A DNA stretch of 64,000 bases from Opitutales bacterium. Its GTDB lineage: Bacteria; Verrucomicrobiota; Verrucomicrobiia; Opitutales; Intestinicryptomonadaceae. Location of the stretch: contig SUVP01000004.1 in assembly GCA_015061945.1 (NCBI GenBank), forward strand, positions 124,001 to 188,000, in the 5' to 3' direction. A model generated the notes under the pieces. The model had not been told where the DNA came from and searched no databases. It saw only the letters and a program-made list of their open reading frames with translations. The position numbers and the translations under genes are program-made. Below, piece after piece: positions 6,065-28,320 of the stretch; positions within the stretch are counted from its first letter, which is position 1, and each line of letters starts with the position of its first letter.

Positions 6065-6092
6065 AAAAGCTCTCGATAAATCGAGAGCTTTT
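6065..6092 (-). terminator. Secretin operon terminator
   Basis: Perfect 12-bp inverted repeat (6065-6076 with 6081-6092) with a 4-base loop, and A/T tracts on both sides. It lies 24 bases after the secretin stop codon. Confidence 0.85.
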
Positions 6093-6115: not shown

Positions 6116-8983
6116 TTAGTTTTGTTGTTCCGAACCAGTCGAGAGTACACGTTGTACTGCACCACCAGGCGATACGATTGTTGGGTTCTGGAATACGCTT
6201 CCAGCACGCATACCTGGGAATTGTTCACGAGCAACACTACCTCCTGGAGAGATTCTGTTAACTGTTACGAAAATCAACAAGTTCTTCTTTTGGCGTGATT
6301 CGCCCTTTGATTGGAAGAGTCTGCCAACCCATGGAATATCGCCGAGAACTGGGATTTGGTCGTTAACTGAGATAACTTCTTCACGTGTCAAACCACCCAT
6401 AACGAGTGTTGCACCGTCGAATACTGTTACATTTGTGTGGATTTCACGAACAGAGAATACTGGCATAATGAAGCCTGATGGAACTGTTACTGTTACGCCA
6501 CCCGAGAGAGCAACACCTGTACCACCGTATTCGAGGAAGCCTTCAAACTCTGTTACCTTTGGATTGAGTGTCAAGCTAATTGAGCCGTCTTCTTCAACAT
6601 TTGGTGTAACTTCCATTACAACACCGACGTCAGCTGTTGTGAAGTCTGATGGTGTACCTGGAGTAATTGTTACAGAACCATTATTACCACTTGAATCACC
6701 TGATGATGTACCAACGTTTGATTGCATATCACCCCATGATTCTGGGAAACGCATTTGTTGTGAAACTGTAATCGATGCTGTTTGACCAGAAATTACTGTT
6801 ACCTTTGGTGCACAGAGGAGGTCAGAACCTTGTTTTTGTTCAAGAGCTCTTACTTTCAATTGGAACAAGTAGTTGCCCATTGTACCAAGTTGGAAGTCTG
6901 TTGTTAAGTATTCTTCGTCTGCACCCAAGTTGATTGTCGATGGTAAGTATGGAACATTCATTCTTACAGCTTGGGTTGCTTGACCAGTTTGGATGAATGC
7001 ATTGTTCAAGTTTGGATCAACGTGACCAATTGGAGTTGTGATTGTAATTGGAGTATCGCCAGCATTTGTCTTCTTTGAAGATGCACCTCTGATTGAGCGA
7101 TTGAGCGATGACATCACCTTGTTGTGATCCAACATATTTGAGTGGAGAACATCCCAGTTGAAGCCGAGTTCTTTCAAGTCGCCTTGTGTAACTTCCAAGA
7201 ACTTTGTTTCAATTTCAACTTGCTTGATTTCTGAGTAACGCAAGAGAATGTTGCGTACTTTTTCAAGGTTACGACGTGAGTTTGTTACCAAAACTTTTGT
7301 TCCGTCGAATGCGAGGTTTGCACCATTAGAGAAGTCAACACCAGCTTTCATAAAGAATTGCTTGATTGCTTCGCCTTGGTTTTGGTCGCCACCAGCTGCT
7401 GCACCGCCGCCGCCAAATGGGTCGCTACTTTCGCCACCACCAGCTGCTTTGATACCGAGAATGCGTGTGAGTGCTGCTTGTGTGATTGGGAATTCAAGTG
7501 TATCCATCGATGCAACTGCTTCTGCTGCCTTACGAACTACGATTGTTTCGTTTTCAATGTCGTATTGGTAGCCAGCTTGTTGTGTTACCCAGTTGAGGAT
7601 TTGTCCGAGTGGGAGATCACGCAATGTGAGTGTTACGTTCTTTGCTTCACCACCTGCGTCCATGAGAACGATGTTTACGCCCTTTTTGCCTTCTGTCGAC
7701 TTATCGAAGTCTTGCGACAATACTGACAATGTGCTGATTGCTTGTGCGAGCGGTACACCTGGGTCTGGGAAGCTTACGTTTGGAATTACGATATTACGCA
7801 ACTTCATATCTACTACAGAATCACGACGTTGGTCTGTTGCACCTACGCTATCATCTGTGTATTGAGTTGGACGTTGCCATGCTTTGCTTACTTCATCAAG
7901 CATTTCATCGCGAGTTGCCTTATATGTAAGGTTTCCTGCGTTTTGGAGCTTTTCTGCTATCAAGCGTTGATATGCTTTTGCGACTACATTGTTTGCATCA
8001 AGAGTTTCTACTTGACGGAATGTCGCACGAGCTCCCATATAGTCGCCATACAAGTATTGTTTGCGACCTTTGTCGATAAGAGCGTTTGCCTTTTCAACAC
8101 GGATTGCGTATTCTGGGCTTACGTCTGAGAGTCTATTCTTATATGGGTTTGCTTCGAATTCTTTAACTTCTTCTGCGAAATCGTTAGCTTTTTCTATATC
8201 TTCTTCAACAGTTGCGTATTCTGCCGCAAACTTCTTTGCATTTGGTACGTCGCGATCTGCCATTGCGAGTTTTGCACGTTCTTTTGCCATTACAGCTTTT
8301 GCGTGCTTTACTTTTGCACGTGCCTTATCGCTTATTGGCGAGTATTCGTACGATGCCAACTTTTGATCTGCAGTTGAAAGTTTTTCTACTGCACCAGCCC
8401 AATCGCCTTCGTCCATTGCGTCGTAAGCTTCGTCGACGAGAACGTCTACTGCGTCTAATGTGAGCTGTTGTTTGCGATTTGCTTCTGCTACTGCAGCGTC
8501 AACTGGGCTAACTTCTTTAGCTTTTTCTTCTGCTGCCTTTTCAGCTTCTTCCTTTGCGAGCTTTTCAGCTTCTGCCTTTGCTTCAGCTTCTTTTTCTGCT
8601 GCTTCCTTTGCAGCTTCTTCCTTTGCAATTCTTTCTTCTTCAGCCTTTGCTTTTGCAGCTTCTTGTTCTGCTACAATCTTTTCTACGGCTTCTTTGCTTG
8701 CCAAGACTGGTGCTTCGCCCTTTGTTTGACGTTCGATGTCTGCGTTGACATCTGCAAGCATTCTTTGAACACTTTCGTCTTTAGGAGCTATCTTTACAAG
8801 TTCTTCGAGAGCTTGTTTTGATGCCTTAAAGTCGCCACTGTCTCTTGCTTGGACTGCTGCAACCATCAAGCGGATTTTCTCTTGCGTCTTATCTGCAGAG
8901 TCTGCCGACGCAACGCCCGCGAATGCTGAGCAAGCTATTATAGCTGCTACCGCTACTCGTTTTTGGATTTTATCTATTTTCAT
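6116..8983 (-). CDS. Secretin, outer membrane pore (PilQ/GspD type; Amuc_1098-like)
   Basis: 955-residue secretin, the ring-forming outer membrane channel of type IV pilus and type II secretion systems. A signal peptide ends near VASADS (about residue 28). Residues 30-85 look like a helical repeat, 97-157 are an Ala/Glu/Lys-rich coiled coil, and 180-345 contain more helical repeats of TPR character. Residues about 430-485 form a small periplasmic STN-like ring domain (VTLTLRDLPLGQ). Residues 555-600 are an N-domain. The C-terminal secretin domain carries the signature PVLGDIPWVGRLF near residue 905. It is the last gene of the unit, after PilM-, PilO- and PilP-like genes, the order expected for pilMNOPQ. 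The long N-terminal extension matches Akkermansia-type secretins. Confidence 0.9.
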   Translation of the reverse strand: MKIDKIQKRVAVAAIIACSAFAGVASADSADKTQEKIRLMVAAVQARDSGDFKASKQALEELVKIAPKDESVQRMLADVNADIERQTKGEAPVLASKEAVEKIVAEQEAAKAKAEEERIAKEEAAKEAAEKEAEAKAEAEKLAKEEAEKAAEEKAKEVSPVDAAVAEANRKQQLTLDAVDVLVDEAYDAMDEGDWAGAVEKLSTADQKLASYEYSPISDKARAKVKHAKAVMAKERAKLAMADRDVPNAKKFAAEYATVEEDIEKANDFAEEVKEFEANPYKNRLSDVSPEYAIRVEKANALIDKGRKQYLYGDYMGARATFRQVETLDANNVVAKAYQRLIAEKLQNAGNLTYKATRDEMLDEVSKAWQRPTQYTDDSVGATDQRRDSVVDMKLRNIVIPNVSFPDPGVPLAQAISTLSVLSQDFDKSTEGKKGVNIVLMDAGGEAKNVTLTLRDLPLGQILNWVTQQAGYQYDIENETIVVRKAAEAVASMDTLEFPITQAALTRILGIKAAGGGESSDPFGGGGAAAGGDQNQGEAIKQFFMKAGVDFSNGANLAFDGTKVLVTNSRRNLEKVRNILLRYSEIKQVEIETKFLEVTQGDLKELGFNWDVLHSNMLDHNKVMSSLNRSIRGASSKKTNAGDTPITITTPIGHVDPNLNNAFIQTGQATQAVRMNVPYLPSTINLGADEEYLTTDFQLGTMGNYLFQLKVRALEQKQGSDLLCAPKVTVISGQTASITVSQQMRFPESWGDMQSNVGTSSGDSSGNNGSVTITPGTPSDFTTADVGVVMEVTPNVEEDGSISLTLNPKVTEFEGFLEYGGTGVALSGGVTVTVPSGFIMPVFSVREIHTNVTVFDGATLVMGGLTREEVISVNDQIPVLGDIPWVGRLFQSKGESRQKKNLLIFVTVNRISPGGSVAREQFPGMRAGSVFQNPTIVSPGGAVQRVLSTGSEQQN

Positions 8984-9053
8984 ATATTAGCTGTATTTGT
9001 AATTTGTTGGAGAATTAATGTAGATACTTTTAAAAAAGTTTAAAGCTTTTTTT

Positions 9054-9938
9054 TTATTTTTTTGGCGTTTTATAAGGTTCGACACCTTTTTCCGACAATT
9101 TCATAGTTTGTGGAGATATTTCTTTGTTCGAGGGTACCATCTCTACAACTACGTTGCCGTCGTCAAAATTGAGTGATTTTACAGTGTATGTAGCATCTGC
9201 AACTGTTTGGCTTTCGCCAACTTCACGCACAAACCATTTCTTGCCGTCTGGCAATACAAGTTCGATTCTACGACTGTCTTCTATCACAGTTGGCTTATCT
9301 GAATAGATGCTAATTTCTTTGCCATATTTCTTATCAAAAACCACCACTGTTACAGATTCGCCGATTGTGTTGTCTGCTTTCTTGACACGTTTTCTGTCGA
9401 ACTTCTTAATCGTCAAACCGACTTCGACTTCTTTTGCAAGACCACGTTCATCTTTGACCGACACTTTAATTGGCTCGTTAATTTTGCCCATCATAAATGT
9501 GTTGTCTGCTTCGTTACGCAACTGAATTCTGGGGCTTTCTGGCGAACCCATAAAACCTAAATATTTTACTGGATATGGTTCGTTTGATACACCTGCATAG
9601 CGAAGGGCAAATGATTGGCGAGCCTTTTCCTTTATGTATGGAGACTCTGTTATAAATTTACCATCACTATCAACCCAGATTTGTGGAGCTGTGAACACTT
9701 GGAAAAACCATCTGCCTTCTGCATCTTGAGCTTTCACTTCTGGCCATTCGATTGGCTTGATTTCCATCTTTGGAACACTCACTTCTTTCCACTGCACACC
9801 TTCGGCTTCTTGAGAAAGCAACGATGCCACTTTGTTTGCAGTCTTTTGAAGTTCTGGTTCGTTCATGAAATAGTATGCACTTGATACACCTAATCCCAAT
9901 AACGAAACTAAAAAGAAAATTTTATCGTAGAATTTCAT
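9054..9938 (-). CDS. PilP/Amuc_1099-like inner membrane protein of the pilus locus
   Basis: 294-residue protein with a single N-terminal membrane segment (about residues 6-24, FFLVSLLGLGVSSAYYF) and a beta-rich periplasmic part. Sequence alone does not give a firm family. Its position between the Amuc_1100-like gene and the secretin, its size and its topology match Amuc_1099 of Akkermansia, and the slot usually filled by PilP or GspC, which link the inner membrane platform to the secretin ring. A strong Shine-Dalgarno stretch (AAGGAGTAAGGAAG) lies within the end of the preceding gene, suggesting coupled translation. The function is inferred from context. Confidence 0.65.
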   Translation of the reverse strand: MKFYDKIFFLVSLLGLGVSSAYYFMNEPELQKTANKVASLLSQEAEGVQWKEVSVPKMEIKPIEWPEVKAQDAEGRWFFQVFTAPQIWVDSDGKFITESPYIKEKARQSFALRYAGVSNEPYPVKYLGFMGSPESPRIQLRNEADNTFMMGKINEPIKVSVKDERGLAKEVEVGLTIKKFDRKRVKKADNTIGESVTVVVFDKKYGKEISIYSDKPTVIEDSRRIELVLPDGKKWFVREVGESQTVADATYTVKSLNFDDGNVVVEMVPSNKEISPQTMKLSEKGVEPYKTPKK

Positions 9939-9947
9939 ATTTCTTCC

Positions 9948-11030
9948 TTACTCCTTGTCGCCTTCTTTTTTTACGTCAGGCTTTTTTACAACCTCAACGT
10001 ATTCTATGACCACCGTGAATTCGGAAATATTATCTGTTACAACAGGGGTCTTTGTTTCTTGCTGTGCAGATGAATCTGCTTCAGCCGATTGTTCTGATTG
10101 CTGTTGTGTATTTCCACTATTATCGTTGAAGAGCGATGACAAACTATCCGATTGTGCCGATGTTGTGCCAGTTTGCTCTGCTACAAATTCTGCCGATGCT
10201 GGTGCGATTGATTCCCACTTTGTCATATCAGCTGGTTTTACATCAATACTGCGAACTACAAGCATTGCGTCGAAATCTTTGAGCTGATTGAGGAAACGGC
10301 GGAGTACGTCGGTATGCCCTGCAAACACAAACCTATATGCGAGTGTATCTAAGCTACCTTTCTTGCGTGCTGTGATTGCTTCGTCGATTTTAAAGTTGTC
10401 GCCCGAATTGCTTTCTGCAACTCTGCGAGCACGGGCACCACGTTTATTCTTTTGTACTTTTACGCCTTCAGATTCGAGAATTTCACGTTGTACTGCAAAG
10501 ATTCCCATTGGCGATTTTTCTGTCTTACATGCGAACAATTTTTTGTTGATGTAATTGAGTACGCAAGCTTGCTTCCACAAATCTGCGATTGCTGAATCCT
10601 TTGGAGGTTCTGCGTTTGGTGCTACATATTTTTTGAAACCAAAGTCCATATCGCTACCGATACGGATGTCCAATTTTTGTGCTTCCTTACGCCAGCTGTT
10701 TACAAAGCCACGCAACTGTTCAACTAATTGATAACCCTCTTTTGCTGTCAATGGCTTGAAGATATCTGTTGATGCACGAGTCAAATCTTTTTCCAAAAAC
10801 TCTAAATGACCTTCGAGTCTTGCGATATTTGAATTTGATGCGTCGATTGCTTTTTGAGTAGGATCATCTGCTAATGCCGATCTATATTTACGCATTGCAT
10901 TATCCAAAGATTTTGCAGATTGTCCCTTTTGAGAAATCAATACTACATCAAACGCTGCGAGTGCGGCAAACGCTACGAGCAATGCCGATACTACAACGAA
11001 AAATATGGGATATTTTTTAAAGTATTTCAT
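9948..11030 (-). CDS. Amuc_1100-like / PilO-like pilus protein
   Basis: 360-residue protein: short cytoplasmic tail, one membrane segment (about 9-31), a coiled-coil region (40-85), a globular part, and a Ser/Gln-rich low-complexity linker (about 288-335) before a final beta segment (SEFTVVIEYVEVV). Architecture and position, directly after PilM and before the PilP-like gene, match Amuc_1100 of Akkermansia muciniphila, the pilus-locus outer-surface protein known for host effects. In pilMNOPQ terms this is the PilO slot. A good Shine-Dalgarno (AGGAGA) precedes the start. Pairwise identity to Amuc_1100 seems low by eye, so the match rests mainly on synteny and architecture. Confidence 0.68.
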   Translation of the reverse strand: MKYFKKYPIFFVVVSALLVAFAALAAFDVVLISQKGQSAKSLDNAMRKYRSALADDPTQKAIDASNSNIARLEGHLEFLEKDLTRASTDIFKPLTAKEGYQLVEQLRGFVNSWRKEAQKLDIRIGSDMDFGFKKYVAPNAEPPKDSAIADLWKQACVLNYINKKLFACKTEKSPMGIFAVQREILESEGVKVQKNKRGARARRVAESNSGDNFKIDEAITARKKGSLDTLAYRFVFAGHTDVLRRFLNQLKDFDAMLVVRSIDVKPADMTKWESIAPASAEFVAEQTGTTSAQSDSLSSLFNDNSGNTQQQSEQSAEADSSAQQETKTPVVTDNISEFTVVIEYVEVVKKPDVKKEGDKE

Positions 11031-11048
11031 CTTAAAAATCTCCTAACT

Positions 11049-12698
11049 TTAGATAGGCTTGTCTGGGTTGACAACAAGCGTGAAGTCGAACTTAAGAATT
11101 CTTGGGTTTGATGGGTCCGTTCTTACGTTCGAATAATCTTTAATAAATGTTGATGTCTTGAATGAATCGAGCAATTTGTTGATTCTTTCAATCGCTTTAT
11201 TTGTGTCGTACGCTGTTGGATCATCTGGGTTGACTTCGCGTAAGAGCAAGCGACCTGTAAGCTCAAGATTATATGTTTGTTTCTTGCCGTCGCTCGAACG
11301 TACAACACGAAGGTTATCAAGCCATACGTCTTTTTGTTCCATCAAGCGTTGTTCAAGATCTATAAACAGATTTATCCAGTTAGACTTCGATTTTGCCAAA
11401 CCTTCTAAACCTGCAATCTTTGCTGAAATTGCTTTTGCCTTTTCTTCGTTCTCTTGGAGCTTTTCAATTCTTTCCTGCAACGCTGGAGTCTTTTCAGCAA
11501 ACTCTCTTATATAATTATTATCTGCAGAAATCGTCTTATTTACCAAGAGGAATGGTGGCACTGCCGACAACGCCAAAAGCACTGCACTCAAAATCATAAG
11601 TGGACGTTTTGATGCAAAGGCAGATTCTTCAATGATATGTTTTGGGATGAGATTTACACCCATTGCATCTGCCATTACCATTGTCGATGCTTCACCGATT
11701 ACTTCGCCCATCAATGGCGTGCAAGCCGAAAGCAAAGCTTGATTTACTGAACCCGACACTGCTACGTTCGCAAGCGGATTAAAGAATTCTACATTCATCT
11801 TTTGGTCTTCAGCCAAATATTCTGCGAAACCTGGCAAAGATGAACCTCTACCTGTCAAATAAATTTTTGTAGGTGTTGCGACCTTCCCTGTGCGACGATA
11901 ATTGAGAATTGAACGTTTCAATTCCAATCCGATTCTTTGCATCACACTCTTTGCACTTGCATTGAAATGTTCTGCCGCACTTGCCGCTGTTGACGACATC
12001 TCGACATCTTCGTGATCACGGAAGAATTTGCGTTTAAGATCTTCTGCTACGTCGAAACTTTGACCCATTGAATCGCCAATGGCTTGTGTGAGTGCATTAC
12101 CGCCAACTGGGATGCTTCTTGCAAACAAGCCGTCATCACGAACAACAAGCATATTCGAGAAGCGAGCACCAACGTTAAGAATTACTGAATTTGGCTCAAG
12201 CCCGCAATATTTCCATGCGTTGTAATCGAGAATTGACGATGCTTGGATTTTTTCTGGAATTACACCTACACTTCTGAGTACGTCGCAGAACTCGTCTGCC
12301 AACGATGCTTTCATCGATGTAAGGAAGATTTCGCTTTCTACACCGTCGTCTGAAATAATCTGATAATCCCAAACCACTTCACTGATTGGATAAGGGATAT
12401 TCTTTTCAGCTTCAAATGCTATAACCTCGTTGCGACGTGATGCGTCAACGTGTGGTATTTTGATTGTCTTTGTGAGCAAGAACATTGTAGGTGCAACTAC
12501 TGTTGCTTTGCCCGATACATTCATTACTCGCAATGTAGAACGCAATGCCTCAAGCCAATCTTCCTGTATGGAATAATCGTATGAGAGCTCCTGCATCTTA
12601 AAGTCTTCAAGCACCAAGCTCCCGCCTTGCACGCCAAATTTGGCAGCGGTAACGTGGGTCGCCTGACAGTTTATTATAAGCTTGTTTTTAGCAGTCAT
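11049..12698 (-). CDS. pilM: PilM-PilN fusion, pilus/secretion inner membrane platform (Amuc_1101-like)
   Basis: 549 residues in two parts. Residues 5-345 are an actin-like PilM ATPase domain, with glycine-rich segments at VILNVGARFSN (about 172) and YLTGRGSSLPG (about 280). Residues 348-352 read VNLIP, the N-terminal signature of PilN; one transmembrane helix (366-387) follows, then a coiled coil (395-435) and a periplasmic PilN-like domain (440-549). In standard type IV pili PilM is a cytosolic protein that binds the NLLP peptide of a separate PilN; here both are one polypeptide. No separate pilN exists in the locus. A terminator upstream (12810-12844) suggests that this gene has its own promoter. 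Confidence 0.85.
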   Translation of the reverse strand: MTAKNKLIINCQATHVTAAKFGVQGGSLVLEDFKMQELSYDYSIQEDWLEALRSTLRVMNVSGKATVVAPTMFLLTKTIKIPHVDASRRNEVIAFEAEKNIPYPISEVVWDYQIISDDGVESEIFLTSMKASLADEFCDVLRSVGVIPEKIQASSILDYNAWKYCGLEPNSVILNVGARFSNMLVVRDDGLFARSIPVGGNALTQAIGDSMGQSFDVAEDLKRKFFRDHEDVEMSSTAASAAEHFNASAKSVMQRIGLELKRSILNYRRTGKVATPTKIYLTGRGSSLPGFAEYLAEDQKMNVEFFNPLANVAVSGSVNQALLSACTPLMGEVIGEASTMVMADAMGVNLIPKHIIEESAFASKRPLMILSAVLLALSAVPPFLLVNKTISADNNYIREFAEKTPALQERIEKLQENEEKAKAISAKIAGLEGLAKSKSNWINLFIDLEQRLMEQKDVWLDNLRVVRSSDGKKQTYNLELTGRLLLREVNPDDPTAYDTNKAIERINKLLDSFKTSTFIKDYSNVRTDPSNPRILKFDFTLVVNPDKPI

Positions 12699-12809
12699 CG
12701 TTTAAATAAAAGTGAAAAACAGTCGTAAAATAATATAGGGGTATTTGTAGAATCTAACAGAATACTCCGTCATTAGTAAAGCTATTTTTTCGTATTATAG
12801 AAAAAAATA

Positions 12810-12844
12810 TTCGCTGAAAATCATTTTTCACGATTTTCAGCGAA
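12810..12844 (-). terminator. Terminator after the Amuc_1102-like gene
   Basis: Perfect 13-bp inverted repeat (12810-12822 with 12832-12844), 9-base loop, followed on the minus strand by a T-rich run. The left side of the gap (12699-12809) is AT-rich and probably holds the pilM promoter; TATAAT-like boxes are visible, but no convincing -35. Confidence 0.75.
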
Positions 12845-12854
12845 CAAATTTATA

Positions 12855-13541
12855 CTACTTTGCGTTGATATATGTAGGAATATATCTGCACTGCGACGGA
12901 TTTACTCTGTACTCGTATTCTTGTACATTAAATGGTGCTTGCGAAAGGTTCATCAAAACATTTTCGTTTGCCGATGCACCGCTTTGTACAAATTTCTGAT
13001 AGTTGTCGTAAATCTTTTTAATGTCGCTTCCCCTGCAGAGTACTTTTGAAAGCAATGTCTTATAATTCTGCTTTGAAAGTTCGATTGGTGTTCCACCGAC
13101 AGACAAGTCAATACTCCAAGCAAATGGTTCTTTTTTGAGACGATAAATTTCTTTTGCTTCAAATGGAATATAGAATACTGCAACTGTCTTTTCCTTCACT
13201 TTAATCGCAAAGAGACGTGCCTTATTTTTAAATACCAAAAGGCTATCTGCCGACTTCTTATTTTTTGCCTTTTCGTCGCGATATACCAATGTAAGTGTTA
13301 CATCGACATCACGGATGAACTTGTCGTTATTTGCTTTTTTATCTGGGTTTTCATTCCCCATCAATTCGATAGCAACACGAGTCCATTCTCCAGCAGACAA
13401 CATAATTTGACCTTGTTGTACTTGCTTAAATTCAACTTTTGTTACTGAAACTGCGTCTTGTTGTTGAGCAAATGCTGTTGCACAAAACGCAAACACTGAC
13501 AATACGTAAAATAACTTTTTCATAACTTTCATAAAATTCAT
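12855..13541 (-). CDS. Secreted Amuc_1102-like protein of the pilus locus
   Basis: 228-residue exported protein. A signal peptide ends at ATAFAQ, and the rest is beta-rich with no recognised catalytic motif. It sits immediately upstream of pilM, as Amuc_1102 does in Akkermansia; family membership is inferred from place, size and secretion. Three in-frame ATGs (13541, 13532, 13523) precede the signal sequence. MKKLFYVLSV at 13523 is the most typical signal-peptide start, so the mature protein is the same whichever is used. It is separated from pilM by a strong terminator, so its expression may be uncoupled from the membrane components. Confidence 0.65.
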   Translation of the reverse strand: MNFMKVMKKLFYVLSVFAFCATAFAQQQDAVSVTKVEFKQVQQGQIMLSAGEWTRVAIELMGNENPDKKANNDKFIRDVDVTLTLVYRDEKAKNKKSADSLLVFKNKARLFAIKVKEKTVAVFYIPFEAKEIYRLKKEPFAWSIDLSVGGTPIELSKQNYKTLLSKVLCRGSDIKKIYDNYQKFVQSGASANENVLMNLSQAPFNVQEYEYRVNPSQCRYIPTYINAK

Positions 13542-25073: not shown

Positions 25074-25496
25074 ATGCAAAGAAACAAGAAACAACAACGT
25101 AAAGCGTTTACTCTGATGGAAGTGTTGCTCGCAATAGCAATGATTTCTATGTTGGCATTCCTCGTTGTTAGCAATGTCGATAATGTAATGACAGGTGGAC
25201 AAACAAAAATCGCACAATCAATGGTGAAAGATTCTTTGGCAACTCCGATTATGTCGTACAAACTTTCAATAGGTAGATACCCTACAACAGAAGAAGGTCT
25301 TAACGCACTCGTTACTGCACCTGATTCAGTCGAAAGCCGTTGGAAAGGTCCATACGCAAGAAATATTCCGCTCGATCCATGGGGAAATCCATATCAATAC
25401 AAATGCCCTGCCGTAAAAAGTAAAGAAGGCTACGACATTTGGTCGAATGGTCCTGACGGACAACCTGACACAGAAGACGACATCGGCAACTGGTAG
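25074..25496 (+). CDS. gspG: Type II secretion major pseudopilin GspG
   Basis: 140-residue major pseudopilin. A basic leader ends in RKA and is followed by FTLMEVLLA, with the invariant Glu at position +5 of the mature protein (E16) and a long hydrophobic helix. The C-terminal part has the GspG signature: GRYPTTEEGLNALV, GPYARNIPLDPWGNPYQY and a final GxPDTEDDIGNW calcium-site region. Position -1 is Ala instead of the usual Gly. First gene of a five-gene pseudopilin operon with a strong ribosome binding site. Confidence 0.95.
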   Translation: MQRNKKQQRKAFTLMEVLLAIAMISMLAFLVVSNVDNVMTGGQTKIAQSMVKDSLATPIMSYKLSIGRYPTTEEGLNALVTAPDSVESRWKGPYARNIPLDPWGNPYQYKCPAVKSKEGYDIWSNGPDGQPDTEDDIGNW

Positions 25497-25504
25497 TATT
25501 ATCG

Positions 25505-26044
25505 ATGTACGCATCAGTGCGAAAAGCGTTTACCTTAATGGAAATTTTGCTGGCAATCGCACTGATTGCCTTTATGGGCGGATTTGTCGCAATGGGAATA
25601 AGTATGTTCTCTGAAGACACATTGAAATCTCGCCCAATCGACAGAATATTTATCACAACTTTAAAGACAGCACAATCTGAAGCCATTTTAAAAGGCAAAC
25701 GGATTGTGCTTTCTTATTCTAAAGAAGGATTCTTTCTTTTGAAAGATTATCAAACTGGCGAAGAATGCATACGCGTTTGGCTAAATCCGGAACTCGAGAA
25801 AGATTCAAAAAAAGAAAAAGCCGATAGAACAATTCTTCCACCAAATGTAAAAATATTGTTCACTGCCGACGTTCCTGAATCGGTCGGAACAGAGAATGTG
25901 GATTTTAAGCTTGAACCATTAAAAGAAATCCACATTGCCCCCGATGGCACTTGCACACCATCAACTGCTCAATTTATATATGGCGACGAACCACCAATTA
26001 CCATAAAAATAGATCCTTTCTCGGCGTCGCCAAAAGACTTCTGA
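25505..26044 (+). CDS. gspH: Type II secretion minor pseudopilin, GspH-like
   Basis: 179 residues: leader MYASVRKA, cleavage before FTLMEILLAIAL (Glu+5 present), hydrophobic helix, then a beta-rich domain with a GspH-like pattern (RIFITTLKTAQSEAILKGKR, LSYSKEGFFLL). Identity as GspH rests on its order between gspG and gspI and on its length. It starts eight bases after gspG. In known systems GspH sits at or near the tip of the pseudopilus. Confidence 0.8.
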   Translation: MYASVRKAFTLMEILLAIALIAFMGGFVAMGISMFSEDTLKSRPIDRIFITTLKTAQSEAILKGKRIVLSYSKEGFFLLKDYQTGEECIRVWLNPELEKDSKKEKADRTILPPNVKILFTADVPESVGTENVDFKLEPLKEIHIAPDGTCTPSTAQFIYGDEPPITIKIDPFSASPKDF

Positions 26045-26045
26045 A

Positions 26046-26519
26046 ATGCAACTGCAACGCAACAAAAATATCAATCGAAAAGCATTCACTCTCTTGGAGG
26101 GAATTCTTGCGTTGGCTCTTTTTGCATCGGCAGCATTTGTGATATCGCAAGTGTGCTATAACTGCATATACTCGCTGGACATCGCCGATAAATCGGCAAT
26201 GGACGACGCAATTAAAGATCAATTTGTATCGGCAATTCTCACCGTGTCAGACTACGATTCTCTCGACGACGGCGTAGAAATTGAAGCTCTCGACGGCGAA
26301 ACTTACACTGTTTATGGCGAAGCAGAACCGACACAAATTCTCAATCTTTTTAAGCTGACTGTCTCTGCTCGAAAAGGTATGGGTGAAATTAAAACAACTT
26401 TGTTTGTAGTTCGCCCAAACTCGTGGTACGAACAACCAAATGAACGTTCTGATTTACTCGAGGACAGAACAGATTTTCTCGAAGATAAACGTCGAGAATG
26501 GGAGGCAGAAAACCGATGA
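26046..26519 (+). CDS. gspI: Type II secretion minor pseudopilin, GspI-like
   Basis: 157 residues with a prepilin leader ending NRKA, then FTLLEGILALALFASAAF. The C-terminal domain has no strong motif, but order and size fit GspI, part of the GspI-J-K tip complex. It begins one base after gspH and overlaps the next gene by ATGA. Confidence 0.78.
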   Translation: MQLQRNKNINRKAFTLLEGILALALFASAAFVISQVCYNCIYSLDIADKSAMDDAIKDQFVSAILTVSDYDSLDDGVEIEALDGETYTVYGEAEPTQILNLFKLTVSARKGMGEIKTTLFVVRPNSWYEQPNERSDLLEDRTDFLEDKRREWEAENR

Positions 26520-27172
26520 AAACTCGCAAGGCATTCACGCTACTCGAAGCGATTTTAGCAATGTCGATATCGGCAATTGTTATGTTCGGCTGTGCATCTA
26601 TGCTCTATGATATGATTGCCGTTGGCGAACGTTTGGAACGTTCGTGGTCGCTGAAATCGCACGCTGACGGTGTCGAAAGATTTTTACAAAGTGCAGTGTC
26701 GTCGTCGCTAATAATGCACCCAACACGTATTCAAGAAGTGCTTGCGACATTCCCCTCAAAAACGATGTGCTTATCGCAACCACCAGAAATGAATTCTGCA
26801 AGCGACTACTATCTGACTTTTGGCGTAAATGGCTCGCACCCGCTATTTGTGTCGCCTACGGGATTTTCTCCCGCTAAAATTTGCTGGCTATTCCACAACG
26901 AAGACGAAGGGCTTTCAATCATTTGGCGACACGCAAACGCTGAATACGAAAATTCCGACGCTGGTATTTACAAAACAAAAATCTCACCATTCGTAAAAGA
27001 AATAATTTATATTTACGACGACGAAAATGGCTGGGAAGAAGAAACTGAAATAGATTCAACCGACAGCACAAAACTGCCATACTATATAAAATTAGTTTTT
27101 GTTTATGGCGACGAAAAAGCTGAACGTGTGATATCATTATCGGGGCTGGTAGACTCGCAATTCGCAAGATGA
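26516..27172 (+). CDS. gspJ: Type II secretion minor pseudopilin, GspJ-like
   Basis: 218 residues from MKTRKAFTLLEAIL. The frame is open six codons earlier, but this ATG overlaps the gspI stop (ATGA) and follows a GGGAGG ribosome binding site, so it is preferred. After the hydrophobic helix a beta-rich domain follows, with length and order fitting GspJ. It also ends in an ATGA overlap with gspK, implying coupled translation. Confidence 0.82.
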   Translation: MKTRKAFTLLEAILAMSISAIVMFGCASMLYDMIAVGERLERSWSLKSHADGVERFLQSAVSSSLIMHPTRIQEVLATFPSKTMCLSQPPEMNSASDYYLTFGVNGSHPLFVSPTGFSPAKICWLFHNEDEGLSIIWRHANAEYENSDAGIYKTKISPFVKEIIYIYDDENGWEEETEIDSTDSTKLPYYIKLVFVYGDEKAERVISLSGLVDSQFAR

Positions 27173-28320
27173 AATCTCGAAAAGCAAATGCGTTGATATT
27201 TGTACTGGGGCTGATTTTTGCGTCGTCGATTATCGCCGTGAGCATTGTCGAACACGCATCGCGAACACTAAAGACACGTGCGAGTTCCGTCTGCCAACAA
27301 GAATTGCGTACGCAAGCGTATTCGGCACTCTATGCGTCATTAGCAGTGTTGTCGGAGTATTATGAGATAGACAAAAATCTTTACTCGGCAAAACAAGGTT
27401 GGGAAAAACCGCTCGAAGATAAACGCATTGAATTTGACGACGGTACAATTGCCGAAGTCGTAATTTCCGACGAAAGCGGAAAACTGCCACTCTCGGATTT
27501 AAATGCGACAGAATTAACTGCCATTTTTGAAGAAATGGAAATATCCACAAACGACGCACAAGAAATGGCATCGTGCATAATTGATTGGAGCGATAACAAC
27601 ACTGCCGCACTCGTCGACGGAGCCGAACAAGATGATTATGAGGACGACCGTCCCAAACCACCAAACCGACCTATCCAATCTTTTGATGAATTCAGATATA
27701 TCGAAAAAGTACGCGACGTTTTCTTTGACGAAAATGGCGAACCAACCGAAGCTTTCAAAACTTTCCGAAAAGGAATTTCGCTTGAACATTTTGATAGAGT
27801 CAACTTGAACTCTGCATCGCCAGAGACACTAAAAATGATGCTCGATATTGAAGATAAAGATTACGAAGACGATCTTTACGATGCATTGCAAGGCAAGACT
27901 GGTATGGTCTCCGACGGAATTGTTTGGGTGAAAAATCTTGCAGAGTTGCAAGAGAGAACATCGGCTGAAGTGCCGTCTAAACGCAGTGTTTACACTGTAC
28001 AACTTTTGAAAATCGAGATTACAATCAAACGTGGAATCGGCGAGTATTACCTTTGTGCATACTATGCAAACAAACGCACGGTATCGGCTTACGACAAAAA
28101 AATTAAAGCCGTTTACACTCAACAAGAAGACAGACAAGACACTTCAACTGGTGGAAAAATGTCGTCATCGGTTTCAACATCGGCACTCTCTGTGAAATCG
28201 GCGTATGTAAAAACGTCGGACTCTATAATGGGCGGTAGCACAAAAAAAACAAGCACATCAAAAGTTGTAAAAGGCGACTTCCAAATAATAAAAATCCAAG
28301 AAAGAGGGAACTCGCAATAG
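27169..28320 (+). CDS. gspK: Type II secretion minor pseudopilin, GspK-like
   Basis: 383 residues, the largest pseudopilin, as expected for GspK. The leader MKSRKA is followed by NALIFVLGLIFASSI. The conserved Glu+5 is absent, as is typical for GspK, the tip protein. The globular domain contains DESGKLPLSDLNA, ASCIIDWSDNN and LNSASPETLKMML, a helix-hairpin-helix-like region found in GspK. The C-terminal 60 residues are Ser/Thr/Lys-rich. The gene ends one base from the convergent hrpB with no terminator between them. Confidence 0.88.
   Translation: MKSRKANALIFVLGLIFASSIIAVSIVEHASRTLKTRASSVCQQELRTQAYSALYASLAVLSEYYEIDKNLYSAKQGWEKPLEDKRIEFDDGTIAEVVISDESGKLPLSDLNATELTAIFEEMEISTNDAQEMASCIIDWSDNNTAALVDGAEQDDYEDDRPKPPNRPIQSFDEFRYIEKVRDVFFDENGEPTEAFKTFRKGISLEHFDRVNLNSASPETLKMMLDIEDKDYEDDLYDALQGKTGMVSDGIVWVKNLAELQERTSAEVPSKRSVYTVQLLKIEITIKRGIGEYYLCAYYANKRTVSAYDKKIKAVYTQQEDRQDTSTGGKMSSSVSTSALSVKSAYVKTSDSIMGGSTKKTSTSKVVKGDFQIIKIQERGNSQ

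What the first reader, a model, noticed from the sequence alone, without database searches (positions are those of the whole stretch)
6116..13541. Akkermansia-type pilus locus (Amuc_1098-1102-like) outside Akkermansia
Five consecutive minus-strand genes reproduce the order secreted protein, PilM, Amuc_1100-like, Amuc_1099-like, secretin. Amuc_1100 is known for effects on host metabolism and immunity, yet sequence similarity here appears low, so a diverged family member with the same architecture could be informative. Read as pilMNOPQ, the Amuc_1100-like protein falls in the PilO slot and the 294-residue protein in the PilP slot, which suggests a structural role for Amuc_1100.
Basis: partly seen in the sequence, partly recalled or inferred. 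Interest (0 to 1): 0.75.

Follow-up and report, generated by a model that had tools for sequence, protein, structure and literature searches.

The report
Verrucomicrobial type IV pilus alignment module
This is the envelope-spanning part of a type IV pilus machine, shared by most of the phylum Verrucomicrobiota, and it indicates that Amuc_1100, the Akkermansia protein tested as a probiotic ingredient, belongs to a family of inner-membrane pilus-machine parts (PilO) rather than being a special surface protein.

Summary
The five minus-strand genes exist as described and are not a chance resemblance. In a gut Opitutales genome they encode diverged homologues of Amuc_1102, 1101, 1100, 1099 and 1098; the 1099 and 1102 links rest on their families, not on the window proteins alone, and 1102 is the weaker. 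The same order occurs in 63 of 80 named relatives, in an Akkermansia-type locus and across the phylum; Amuc_1100 profiles match 218-254 of 289 Verrucomicrobiota genomes. So "outside Akkermansia" is the rule.

The PilO reading holds: Foldseek gives ten Amuc_1100 crystal chains first, then PilO of Myxococcus and Pseudomonas, and the Pfam PilO model hits one Amuc_1100-family member above cut-off. The Amuc_1101-like protein is a PilM-PilN fusion. The PilP slot is supported by gene order, topology and a natural Amuc_1100::Amuc_1099 fusion in two genomes, but by no sequence or fold match. PilT, two PilB, PilC and a separate type II secretion system lie elsewhere in the genome.

Verdict: an ordinary, conserved type IV pilus alignment module. 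Its value is that it questions the picture of Amuc_1100 as a surface-displayed host effector. A lineage-specific terminator-like hairpin follows the Amuc_1102-like gene.

The parts
12855..13541 (-). Amuc_1102-like protein, 228 aa; Sec-type signal peptide by eye (AFA/Q), no class III prepilin motif
   Evidence: profile A3 vs 7DSZ (Amuc_1102) E 0.13, top hit; 5/33 family members hit Amuc_1102_rel, best 5.8e-5; not among N_methyl hits of the genome
12808..12846 (-). intrinsic-terminator-like hairpin (17-pair stem, 5-nt loop, T-run) just after the Amuc_1102-like gene; putative attenuator of the downstream genes
   Evidence: similar hairpins of different sequence in 10 of 13 loci of this gut Opitutales group (window included) against 1 of 43 elsewhere and 27/1120 shuffles
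11049..12698 (-). Amuc_1101-like PilM-PilN fusion, 549 aa: cytoplasmic actin-like PilM domain (about residues 1-345), transmembrane segment (about 365-390), periplasmic PilN-like part
   Evidence: PilM_2 Pfam E 4e-17; Amuc_1101_fam E 8e-78; PDB PilM E 1e-43 and PilN 3jc8_Na E 2e-4 for profile positions 349-469; hydrophobicity scan
9948..11030 (-). Amuc_1100-like / PilO-like protein, 360 aa: N-terminal hydrophobic helix running into a coiled coil, periplasmic PilO-type core
   Evidence: Amuc_1100_fam E 5e-16; profile vs 6LAD E 7.6e-12; AlphaFold pLDDT 85; Foldseek: ten Amuc_1100 chains E 2e-8 to 3e-7, then PilO 3jc8_Oa, 2rjz, 5uvr
9054..9938 (-). Amuc_1099-like protein in the PilP position, 294 aa: N-terminal hydrophobic helix, extended linker with conserved W and FTxPxI motif, beta-rich periplasmic domain
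   Evidence: 22/52 family members hit Amuc_1099_fam, best 7.7e-9; AlphaFold pLDDT 90; no significant PDB fold match
6116..8983 (-). Amuc_1098-like secretin (PilQ position), 955 aa: signal peptide, Ala/Glu/Lys-rich and TPR-like N-terminal region, C-terminal secretin domain (residues 713-908)
   Evidence: Secretin Pfam E 8.5e-35; Amuc_1098_fam E 3.2e-122; one of two secretins in the genome
6065..6092 (-). intrinsic-terminator-like hairpin directly after the secretin gene

Best explanation
The locus encodes the alignment subcomplex and outer-membrane secretin of a type IV pilus machine. The PilM half of the 549-aa protein sits in the cytoplasm next to the motors. Its PilN half and the Amuc_1100-like PilO protein are anchored in the inner membrane and pair in the periplasm. 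The Amuc_1099-like protein, also inner-membrane anchored, binds them and reaches towards the secretin, taking the role that PilP or GspC plays elsewhere. The Amuc_1098-like secretin forms the outer-membrane gate. The Amuc_1102-like protein is a soluble periplasmic or secreted accessory, not a pilin. The motors (PilB, PilT), PilC and prepilins are encoded elsewhere in the genome. Shown here: gene identities, order, PilM-PilN fusion, Amuc_1100/PilO fold, Amuc_1100::Amuc_1099 fusion in relatives, motors in the genome. Inferred: membrane topology, the PilP-like bridging role, assembly with these motors, the role of the Amuc_1102-like protein.
For: PilO fold: Foldseek hits Amuc_1100 chains (prob 1.00) then PilO 3jc8_Oa (0.99), 2rjz (0.98, 0.96), 5uvr (1.00, TM 0.59 by target, 2.7 A). 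GspM-family HMMs match 9/56 homologues, best 1.9e-6; Pfam PilO exceeds its cut-off on G095:C1:1130428-1130649, the same gene that matches Amuc_1100_fam at 7.4e-13. PilN fused to PilM. Conserved order within the order and across the phylum. Natural Amuc_1100::Amuc_1099 fusions in G164 and G253 in which the Amuc_1099 part has lost its own N-terminal hydrophobic segment. Own genome: PilT above cut-off, two PilB-type ATPases, PilC, prepilins; the other secretin scores best with the T2SS secretin model and sits with GspE and GspF, so this one is the only candidate T4P secretin. PilT in 276/289 Verrucomicrobiota.
Against: No sequence or fold match links the Amuc_1099-like protein to PilP/GspC. Four genomes without detectable PilT keep the Amuc_1100-like gene, so it is not tied strictly to retraction. 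In A. muciniphila, Amuc_1100 was found in a membrane and cell-envelope enriched fraction and by immunofluorescence on cells (PMC5332112), and a pilus location is cited as a personal communication (PMC10688800); both conflict with a purely periplasmic, inner-membrane-anchored protein. The PilO match is at fold level only, at 5-9% identity. Whether the N-terminal segment is an uncleaved anchor was not decided by an AxA-motif count.
Confidence: 0.82

Rival explanations
1. Amuc_1100 and its relatives are outer-membrane or pilus-surface proteins that face the environment, and their PilO-like fold is repurposed.
For: Literature on A. muciniphila: envelope-fraction enrichment, immunofluorescence on cells (PMC5332112), pilus location by personal communication (PMC10688800).
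Against: PilO fold and gene position conserved across the phylum, including marine and freshwater lineages; fusion to the Amuc_1099 domain between the PilM-PilN gene and the secretin gene; the AlphaFold model is not a beta barrel and the gene is not among the prepilin hits.
Confidence: 0.15
2. The locus is a type II secretion system or a mucin-uptake locus (MUL2) rather than part of a type IV pilus machine.
For: PilM-PilN fusion resembles GspL in layout; GspM HMM matches; locus named mucin utilisation locus 2 in Akkermansia (PMC13174399).
Against: The genome has a separate T2SS-type secretin with GspE and GspF and GspGHIJK-like pseudopilins (GspG confirmed); PilT present; the module occurs in marine and freshwater lineages, so mucin is unlikely to be its ancestral substrate.
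Confidence: 0.08
3. The Amuc_1099-like protein is not a PilP/GspC counterpart but a lineage-specific part with another role, such as a peptidoglycan or lipoprotein contact.
For: No PilP/GspC similarity by Pfam, PDB profile, hhalign or Foldseek; PF04351 passes its cut-off in 0 of 289 Verrucomicrobiota genomes (the model also matched none of the 14 control genomes).
Against: Position between PilO and secretin genes, hydrophobic helix plus linker plus beta domain, and fusion to the PilO-like protein in relatives.
Confidence: 0.35

Closest known systems
Akkermansia muciniphila Amuc_1098-1102 cluster (MUL2 locus plus secretin)
   Same: Gene order and strand; homologous 1098, 1100, 1101 proteins; 1099 and 1102 homologous through their families; Amuc_1100 crystal fold.
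   Different: 21-32% global identity; scores below NCBIfam equivalog cut-offs; terminator-like hairpin after the 1102-like gene; other flanking genes (coaD-, hemC- and ilvC-like ORFs, named by eye).
Type IVa pilus alignment subcomplex pilMNOPQ (Pseudomonas, Myxococcus)
   Same: PilM, PilN, PilO, secretin in the same order; PilO fold; PilT/PilB/PilC in the genome.
   Different: PilM and PilN fused; PilP counterpart not recognisable; no AMIN hit in the secretin, which has a TPR/coiled-coil N-terminal region instead; motors not adjacent; extra Amuc_1102-like gene.
Type II secretion GspL-GspM-GspC-GspD
   Same: PilM-PilN fusion has the layout of GspL; GspM HMM hits the PilO-like family; third protein has an N-terminal hydrophobic helix as in GspC.
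   Different: The genome has a separate T2SS-type GspD/E/F set and pseudopilins; this locus lacks motors and pseudopilins.

Membership tests
Amuc_1098-1102-type module (phylum-wide homologous locus) | five genes in the order 1102-1101-1100-1099-1098 on one strand | tested here: met
Amuc_1098-1102-type module (phylum-wide homologous locus) | homology of 1098, 1100, 1101 proteins to the Akkermansia families | tested here: met
Amuc_1098-1102-type module (phylum-wide homologous locus) | homology of the 294-aa protein to Amuc_1099 | tested here: met
   through family members only: 22/52, best 7.7e-9; the window protein alone gives no hit
Amuc_1098-1102-type module (phylum-wide homologous locus) | homology of the 228-aa protein to Amuc_1102 | tested here: inconclusive
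   5/33 family members, best 5.8e-5; 7DSZ top PDB hit but E 0.13; same gene position
NCBIfam equivalogs Amuc_1098_fam, Amuc_1100_fam, Amuc_1101_fam (narrow, curated) | score above the curated cut-off | tested here: not met
   409/750, 59/180, 263/650 bits: homologues, not equivalogs by NCBI's rule
Type IVa pilus machine | PilM actin-like protein | tested here: met
Type IVa pilus machine | PilN | tested here: met
   C-terminal part of the PilM protein family matches PilN 3jc8_Na, E 2e-4
Type IVa pilus machine | PilO | tested here: met
   Foldseek prob 0.96-1.00 to four PilO chains; Pfam PilO over cut-off in a family member
Type IVa pilus machine | PilP | tested here: inconclusive
   position, topology and fusion but no sequence or fold match
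Type IVa pilus machine | secretin PilQ | tested here: met
   secretin domain; the second secretin of the genome scores best as GspD
Type IVa pilus machine | extension and retraction motors, PilC, prepilins in the genome | tested here: met
   PilT over cut-off; two PilB-type ATPases and PilC strong but below their curated cut-offs; N_methyl proteins
Type IVa pilus machine | pili assembled through these proteins | not testable with these tools
   needs genetics and microscopy
Type II secretion system | this secretin is the one served by GspE/F and GspGHIJK | tested here: not met
   a separate GspD-type secretin sits with GspE/F at G000:C14:493-501 kb

The most novel reading that the evidence does not exclude
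Amuc_1100 and its relatives across the Verrucomicrobiota are inner-membrane-anchored PilO proteins facing the periplasm and physically coupled to Amuc_1099, not outer-membrane or pilus-surface proteins; the N-terminal 'signal sequence' removed in the recombinant product is the membrane anchor, and host effects of the recombinant protein are those of a pilus-machine part normally hidden in intact cells.
Probability: 0.65. Interest if true: 0.7.

Novelty: new member of a known kind. Interest (0 to 1): 0.45.

Why it matters
Amuc_1100 is developed as a host-active protein and described as outer-membrane or pilus-associated (PMC10688800, PMC13119276). The 2026 comparative paper calls amuc_1099 and amuc_1100 uncharacterized and reports the locus as conserved in Verrucomicrobiales families (PMC13174399). 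Placing Amuc_1100 in the PilO slot of a phylum-wide pilus machine gives it a concrete structural job, predicts its membrane topology, names its likely partners (the PilN half of Amuc_1101, and Amuc_1099), and explains why the locus occurs in marine and freshwater relatives that do not live on mucin. It also makes the location dispute directly testable. The similarity of the Amuc_1100 crystal structure to type IV pilus and T2SS proteins is already in the literature (cited in PMC13119276), so the PilO link itself is not fully new.

Tried and rejected
phmmer of the single 360-aa protein against the PDB found nothing; a profile was needed. The first related-loci scan failed because the alignment was too diverse. 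Whole-chain Foldseek of the 294-aa model gave no match at E<=0.001; the listed hits have TM-scores of about 0.1 and are not interpreted. hhalign of the Amuc_1099-like family against E. coli HofP and against one PilP-like protein of a relative gave probabilities below 1%, and pairs expected to be positive (with single E. coli HofO/HofN sequences) also failed, so that test lacks power. The Pfam PilP scan of 289 genomes gave none above cut-off, but the model also rang in none of the 14 control genomes, so absence is weak. An AxA cleavage-motif count did not separate anchors from signal peptides (21/56, 17/52, 11/33). Co-occurrence of Amuc_1100 with PilT is nominally significant (Fisher p 6e-4), but most genomes lacking both belong to two families, so it is not independent evidence. 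Sigma-70 scan: fewer sites than in shuffles, not used. The crystal-structure papers on Amuc_1100 are not held in the library, so their exact statements on PilN/PilO could not be read.
Full report
OBSERVATION. The five ORFs lie on the minus strand exactly as reported. In transcription order they are a 228-aa exported protein (12855-13541), a 549-aa PilM-like protein (11049-12698), a 360-aa protein (9948-11030), a 294-aa protein (9054-9938) and a 955-aa secretin (6116-8983). Gaps are 156, 17, 9 and 70 bases, and a strong terminator-like hairpin follows the secretin (6065-6092). NCBIfam identifies three of the five directly: Amuc_1098_fam E 3.2e-122, Amuc_1100_fam E 5.1e-16 over residues 1-325, Amuc_1101_fam E 7.8e-78, all below the curated cut-offs. 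For the other two the link runs through their families: 22 of 52 alignment members of the 294-aa family hit Amuc_1099_fam and 5 of 33 of the 228-aa family hit Amuc_1102_rel. For the latter, the family profile has the Amuc_1102 crystal structure 7DSZ as top PDB hit, though only at E 0.13, so it is the weakest assignment.

DISTRIBUTION. The window lies in a 2.5-Mb, 97%-complete genome; its closest named relatives are Opitutales MAGs and Puniceicoccaceae bacterium Marseille-Q1082. That the host is a gut bacterium is inferred from these relatives. An Amuc_1101 search matched 48 of 54 relatives at E<=0.001, but only about three quarters of those with a locus-type score (E<=1e-61 for 36 genomes); most of the weaker matches look like FtsA-type regions. 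In 63 of 80 named loci from the genome-contig scan (titles naming Opitutia, Puniceicoccaceae and other Verrucomicrobiota, many from marine or freshwater surveys) all five genes occur in the same order on one strand, and no locus shows another order; in most of the rest a gene is missing at the end of a short contig or was not detected. In 20 further loci from across the phylum the block is again largely conserved, with the Amuc_1099 or Amuc_1102 relative undetected in some. Locus L208 is an Akkermansia-type locus: all five of its proteins exceed the curated cut-offs. An Amuc_1100 profile from the order matches 218 of 289 Verrucomicrobiota genomes; a phylum-wide profile matches 254 of 289, of which a minority are weak (1e-3 to about 1e-13) and may include other PilO/GspM-like proteins. 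Genomes of one family (f30) and two 0.9-Mb genomes (f32) lack it. Conservation in Akkermansiaceae and other Verrucomicrobiales families, with low identity, is published (PMC13174399), so the wide distribution extends known work.

THE AMUC_1100-LIKE PROTEIN IS A PilO PROTEIN. Four lines agree. (1) A profile of the order's sequences, built without Akkermansia, finds the Amuc_1100 crystal structures 6LAD and 6KNY at about 1e-11 and nothing else convincing. (2) The AlphaFold model (pLDDT 85) has a hydrophobic N-terminal helix continuing into a coiled coil and an alpha/beta core. Foldseek against the PDB lists ten Amuc_1100 chains first (E 2e-8 to 3e-7, probability 1.00) and then PilO: 3JC8 chain Oa (0.99), 2RJZ (0.98 and 0.96), 5UVR (1.00; TM 0.59 by target, 2.7 A). 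(3) GspM-family models match 9 of 56 homologues (best 1.9e-6) and Pfam T2SSM_b matches 5 weakly (best 0.011). (4) The Pfam PilO model exceeds its cut-off at G095:C1:1130428-1130649, inside the gene that also matches Amuc_1100_fam at 7.4e-13. Similarity of Amuc_1100 to type IV pilus and T2SS proteins has been reported from its crystal structure (cited in PMC13119276), so the present work confirms and generalises it.

PilN IS FUSED TO PilM. The profile of the 549-aa family matches PilM structures over positions 51-343 (E 1e-43) and, separately, PilN of Myxococcus over 349-469 (E 2e-4), with one transmembrane-like segment between. This is the layout of GspL (established knowledge of T2SS).

THE PilP SLOT. 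The 294-aa protein has an N-terminal hydrophobic helix, an extended linker with a conserved W and FTxPxI motif, and a confident beta-rich domain (pLDDT 90). No Pfam, PDB-profile, hhalign or Foldseek match to PilP or GspC was found; the hhalign test had no power, because pairs expected to be positive failed too. In two genomes of one genus of the same order (G164, G253) a single protein carries the Amuc_1100 domain followed by the Amuc_1099 domain, the latter without its own hydrophobic N-terminus (587 aa, E 3.8e-61 and 1.4e-36; second case 552 aa, E 1.4e-47 and 2.9e-28). In G253 the fusion lies between the PilM-PilN gene and the secretin gene. Such a fusion argues that the two proteins work as one unit on the same side of the inner membrane, as PilO and PilP do. 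The role is therefore inferred from position, topology and fusion.

REST OF THE MACHINE. The genome has a PilT above cut-off, and two PilB-type ATPases and a PilC that score strongly but below their curated cut-offs, all on contig C14, and several prepilins. It also has a second secretin with GspE and GspF at C14:493-501 kb: that secretin scores best with the T2SS GspD model (E 1.1e-94). A GspGHIJK-like pseudopilin operon lies inside the window at 25074-28320 (GspG E 3.1e-32). The Amuc_1098-like secretin is thus the only candidate T4P secretin. PilT occurs in 276 of 289 Verrucomicrobiota.

THE AMUC_1102-LIKE PROTEIN. It has a Sec-type signal by eye and no prepilin motif, and is not among the genome's prepilin hits, so it is unlikely to be a pilin in the bacterial sense; Amuc_1102 itself was described from structure as similar to an archaeal type IV pilin (PMC13174399). 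A 17-pair terminator-like hairpin with a T-run lies between it and the PilM gene (12808-12846). The count of terminator-like sites in the region is not above shuffled expectation (8 against 8.3), but this site's stem is the longest found. In the gut Opitutales group 10 of 13 loci have such a hairpin there, with different sequences, against 1 of 43 loci elsewhere and 27 of 1120 shuffles. The set was scanned after the window's own hairpin had been seen, the window itself is counted in the 10, and the gaps outside the group are shorter, so this is a supported lead rather than a blind test. The likely meaning is that the Amuc_1102-like protein is made in excess of the platform proteins (inference).

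CONFLICT WITH THE LITERATURE. Amuc_1100 is described as an outer-membrane, pilus-associated signalling protein: enriched in a membrane and cell-envelope fraction and seen by immunofluorescence on cells (PMC5332112), with a pilus location cited as a personal communication (PMC10688800). A PilO protein is normally anchored in the inner membrane and faces the periplasm (established knowledge of PilO). Both can be reconciled if the protein is released or exposed by fixation, lysis or pasteurisation. The computation here cannot decide this: the AxA test was uninformative, so the retained-anchor reading rests on the fold, the continuous model helix and the fusion.

VERDICT. Observation confirmed. 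Interpretation largely right for PilO, incomplete for PilN, and only positional for PilP. A diverged but ordinary member of a phylum-wide type IV pilus alignment module. Interest 0.45, mainly because it makes the topology and job of Amuc_1100 testable.

Noticed in passing
window 25074-28320 (+): Five-gene operon of prepilin-like proteins that looks like T2SS GspG-H-I-J-K; GspG confirmed (TIGR01710 E 3e-32), the others by N-terminal motif, size and order only.
   Followed up: partly
L226:6722-8485 (G164) and L233:6897-8555 (G253): Natural fusion of the Amuc_1100 and Amuc_1099 domains in one protein, with loss of the Amuc_1099 hydrophobic N-terminus; in both genomes PilT was not detected.
   Followed up: yes
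L220:1-6672 (G240) and L210:10210-16068 (G127): Two or three tandem Amuc_1098-type secretin genes after the Amuc_1100 gene, and no Amuc_1099-like gene detected.
   Followed up: no
L207:1342-1836 (G174): A 164-aa protein with a PilP/GspC-like C-terminal domain (PF04351 E 7.5e-5, below cut-off) next to a PilC/GspF-like gene, in a Verrucomicrobiota genome that also has an Amuc_1100-type match.
   Followed up: partly
G000:C14:253679-256533: Two adjacent PilB-type ATPase paralogues next to PilC; the second also scores with the MshE-type c-di-GMP-binding domain, below its cut-off.
   Followed up: no
window 6116-8983: No AMIN domain was found in the secretin by Pfam; instead a long Ala/Glu/Lys-rich stretch (about residues 108-160) and TPR-like region precede the secretin domain.
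   Followed up: no
L234 (G164:C59:1-8000): In G164 no secretin gene follows the fused gene in the stretch fetched; the genome's only secretin match is on another contig, C46.
   Followed up: partly
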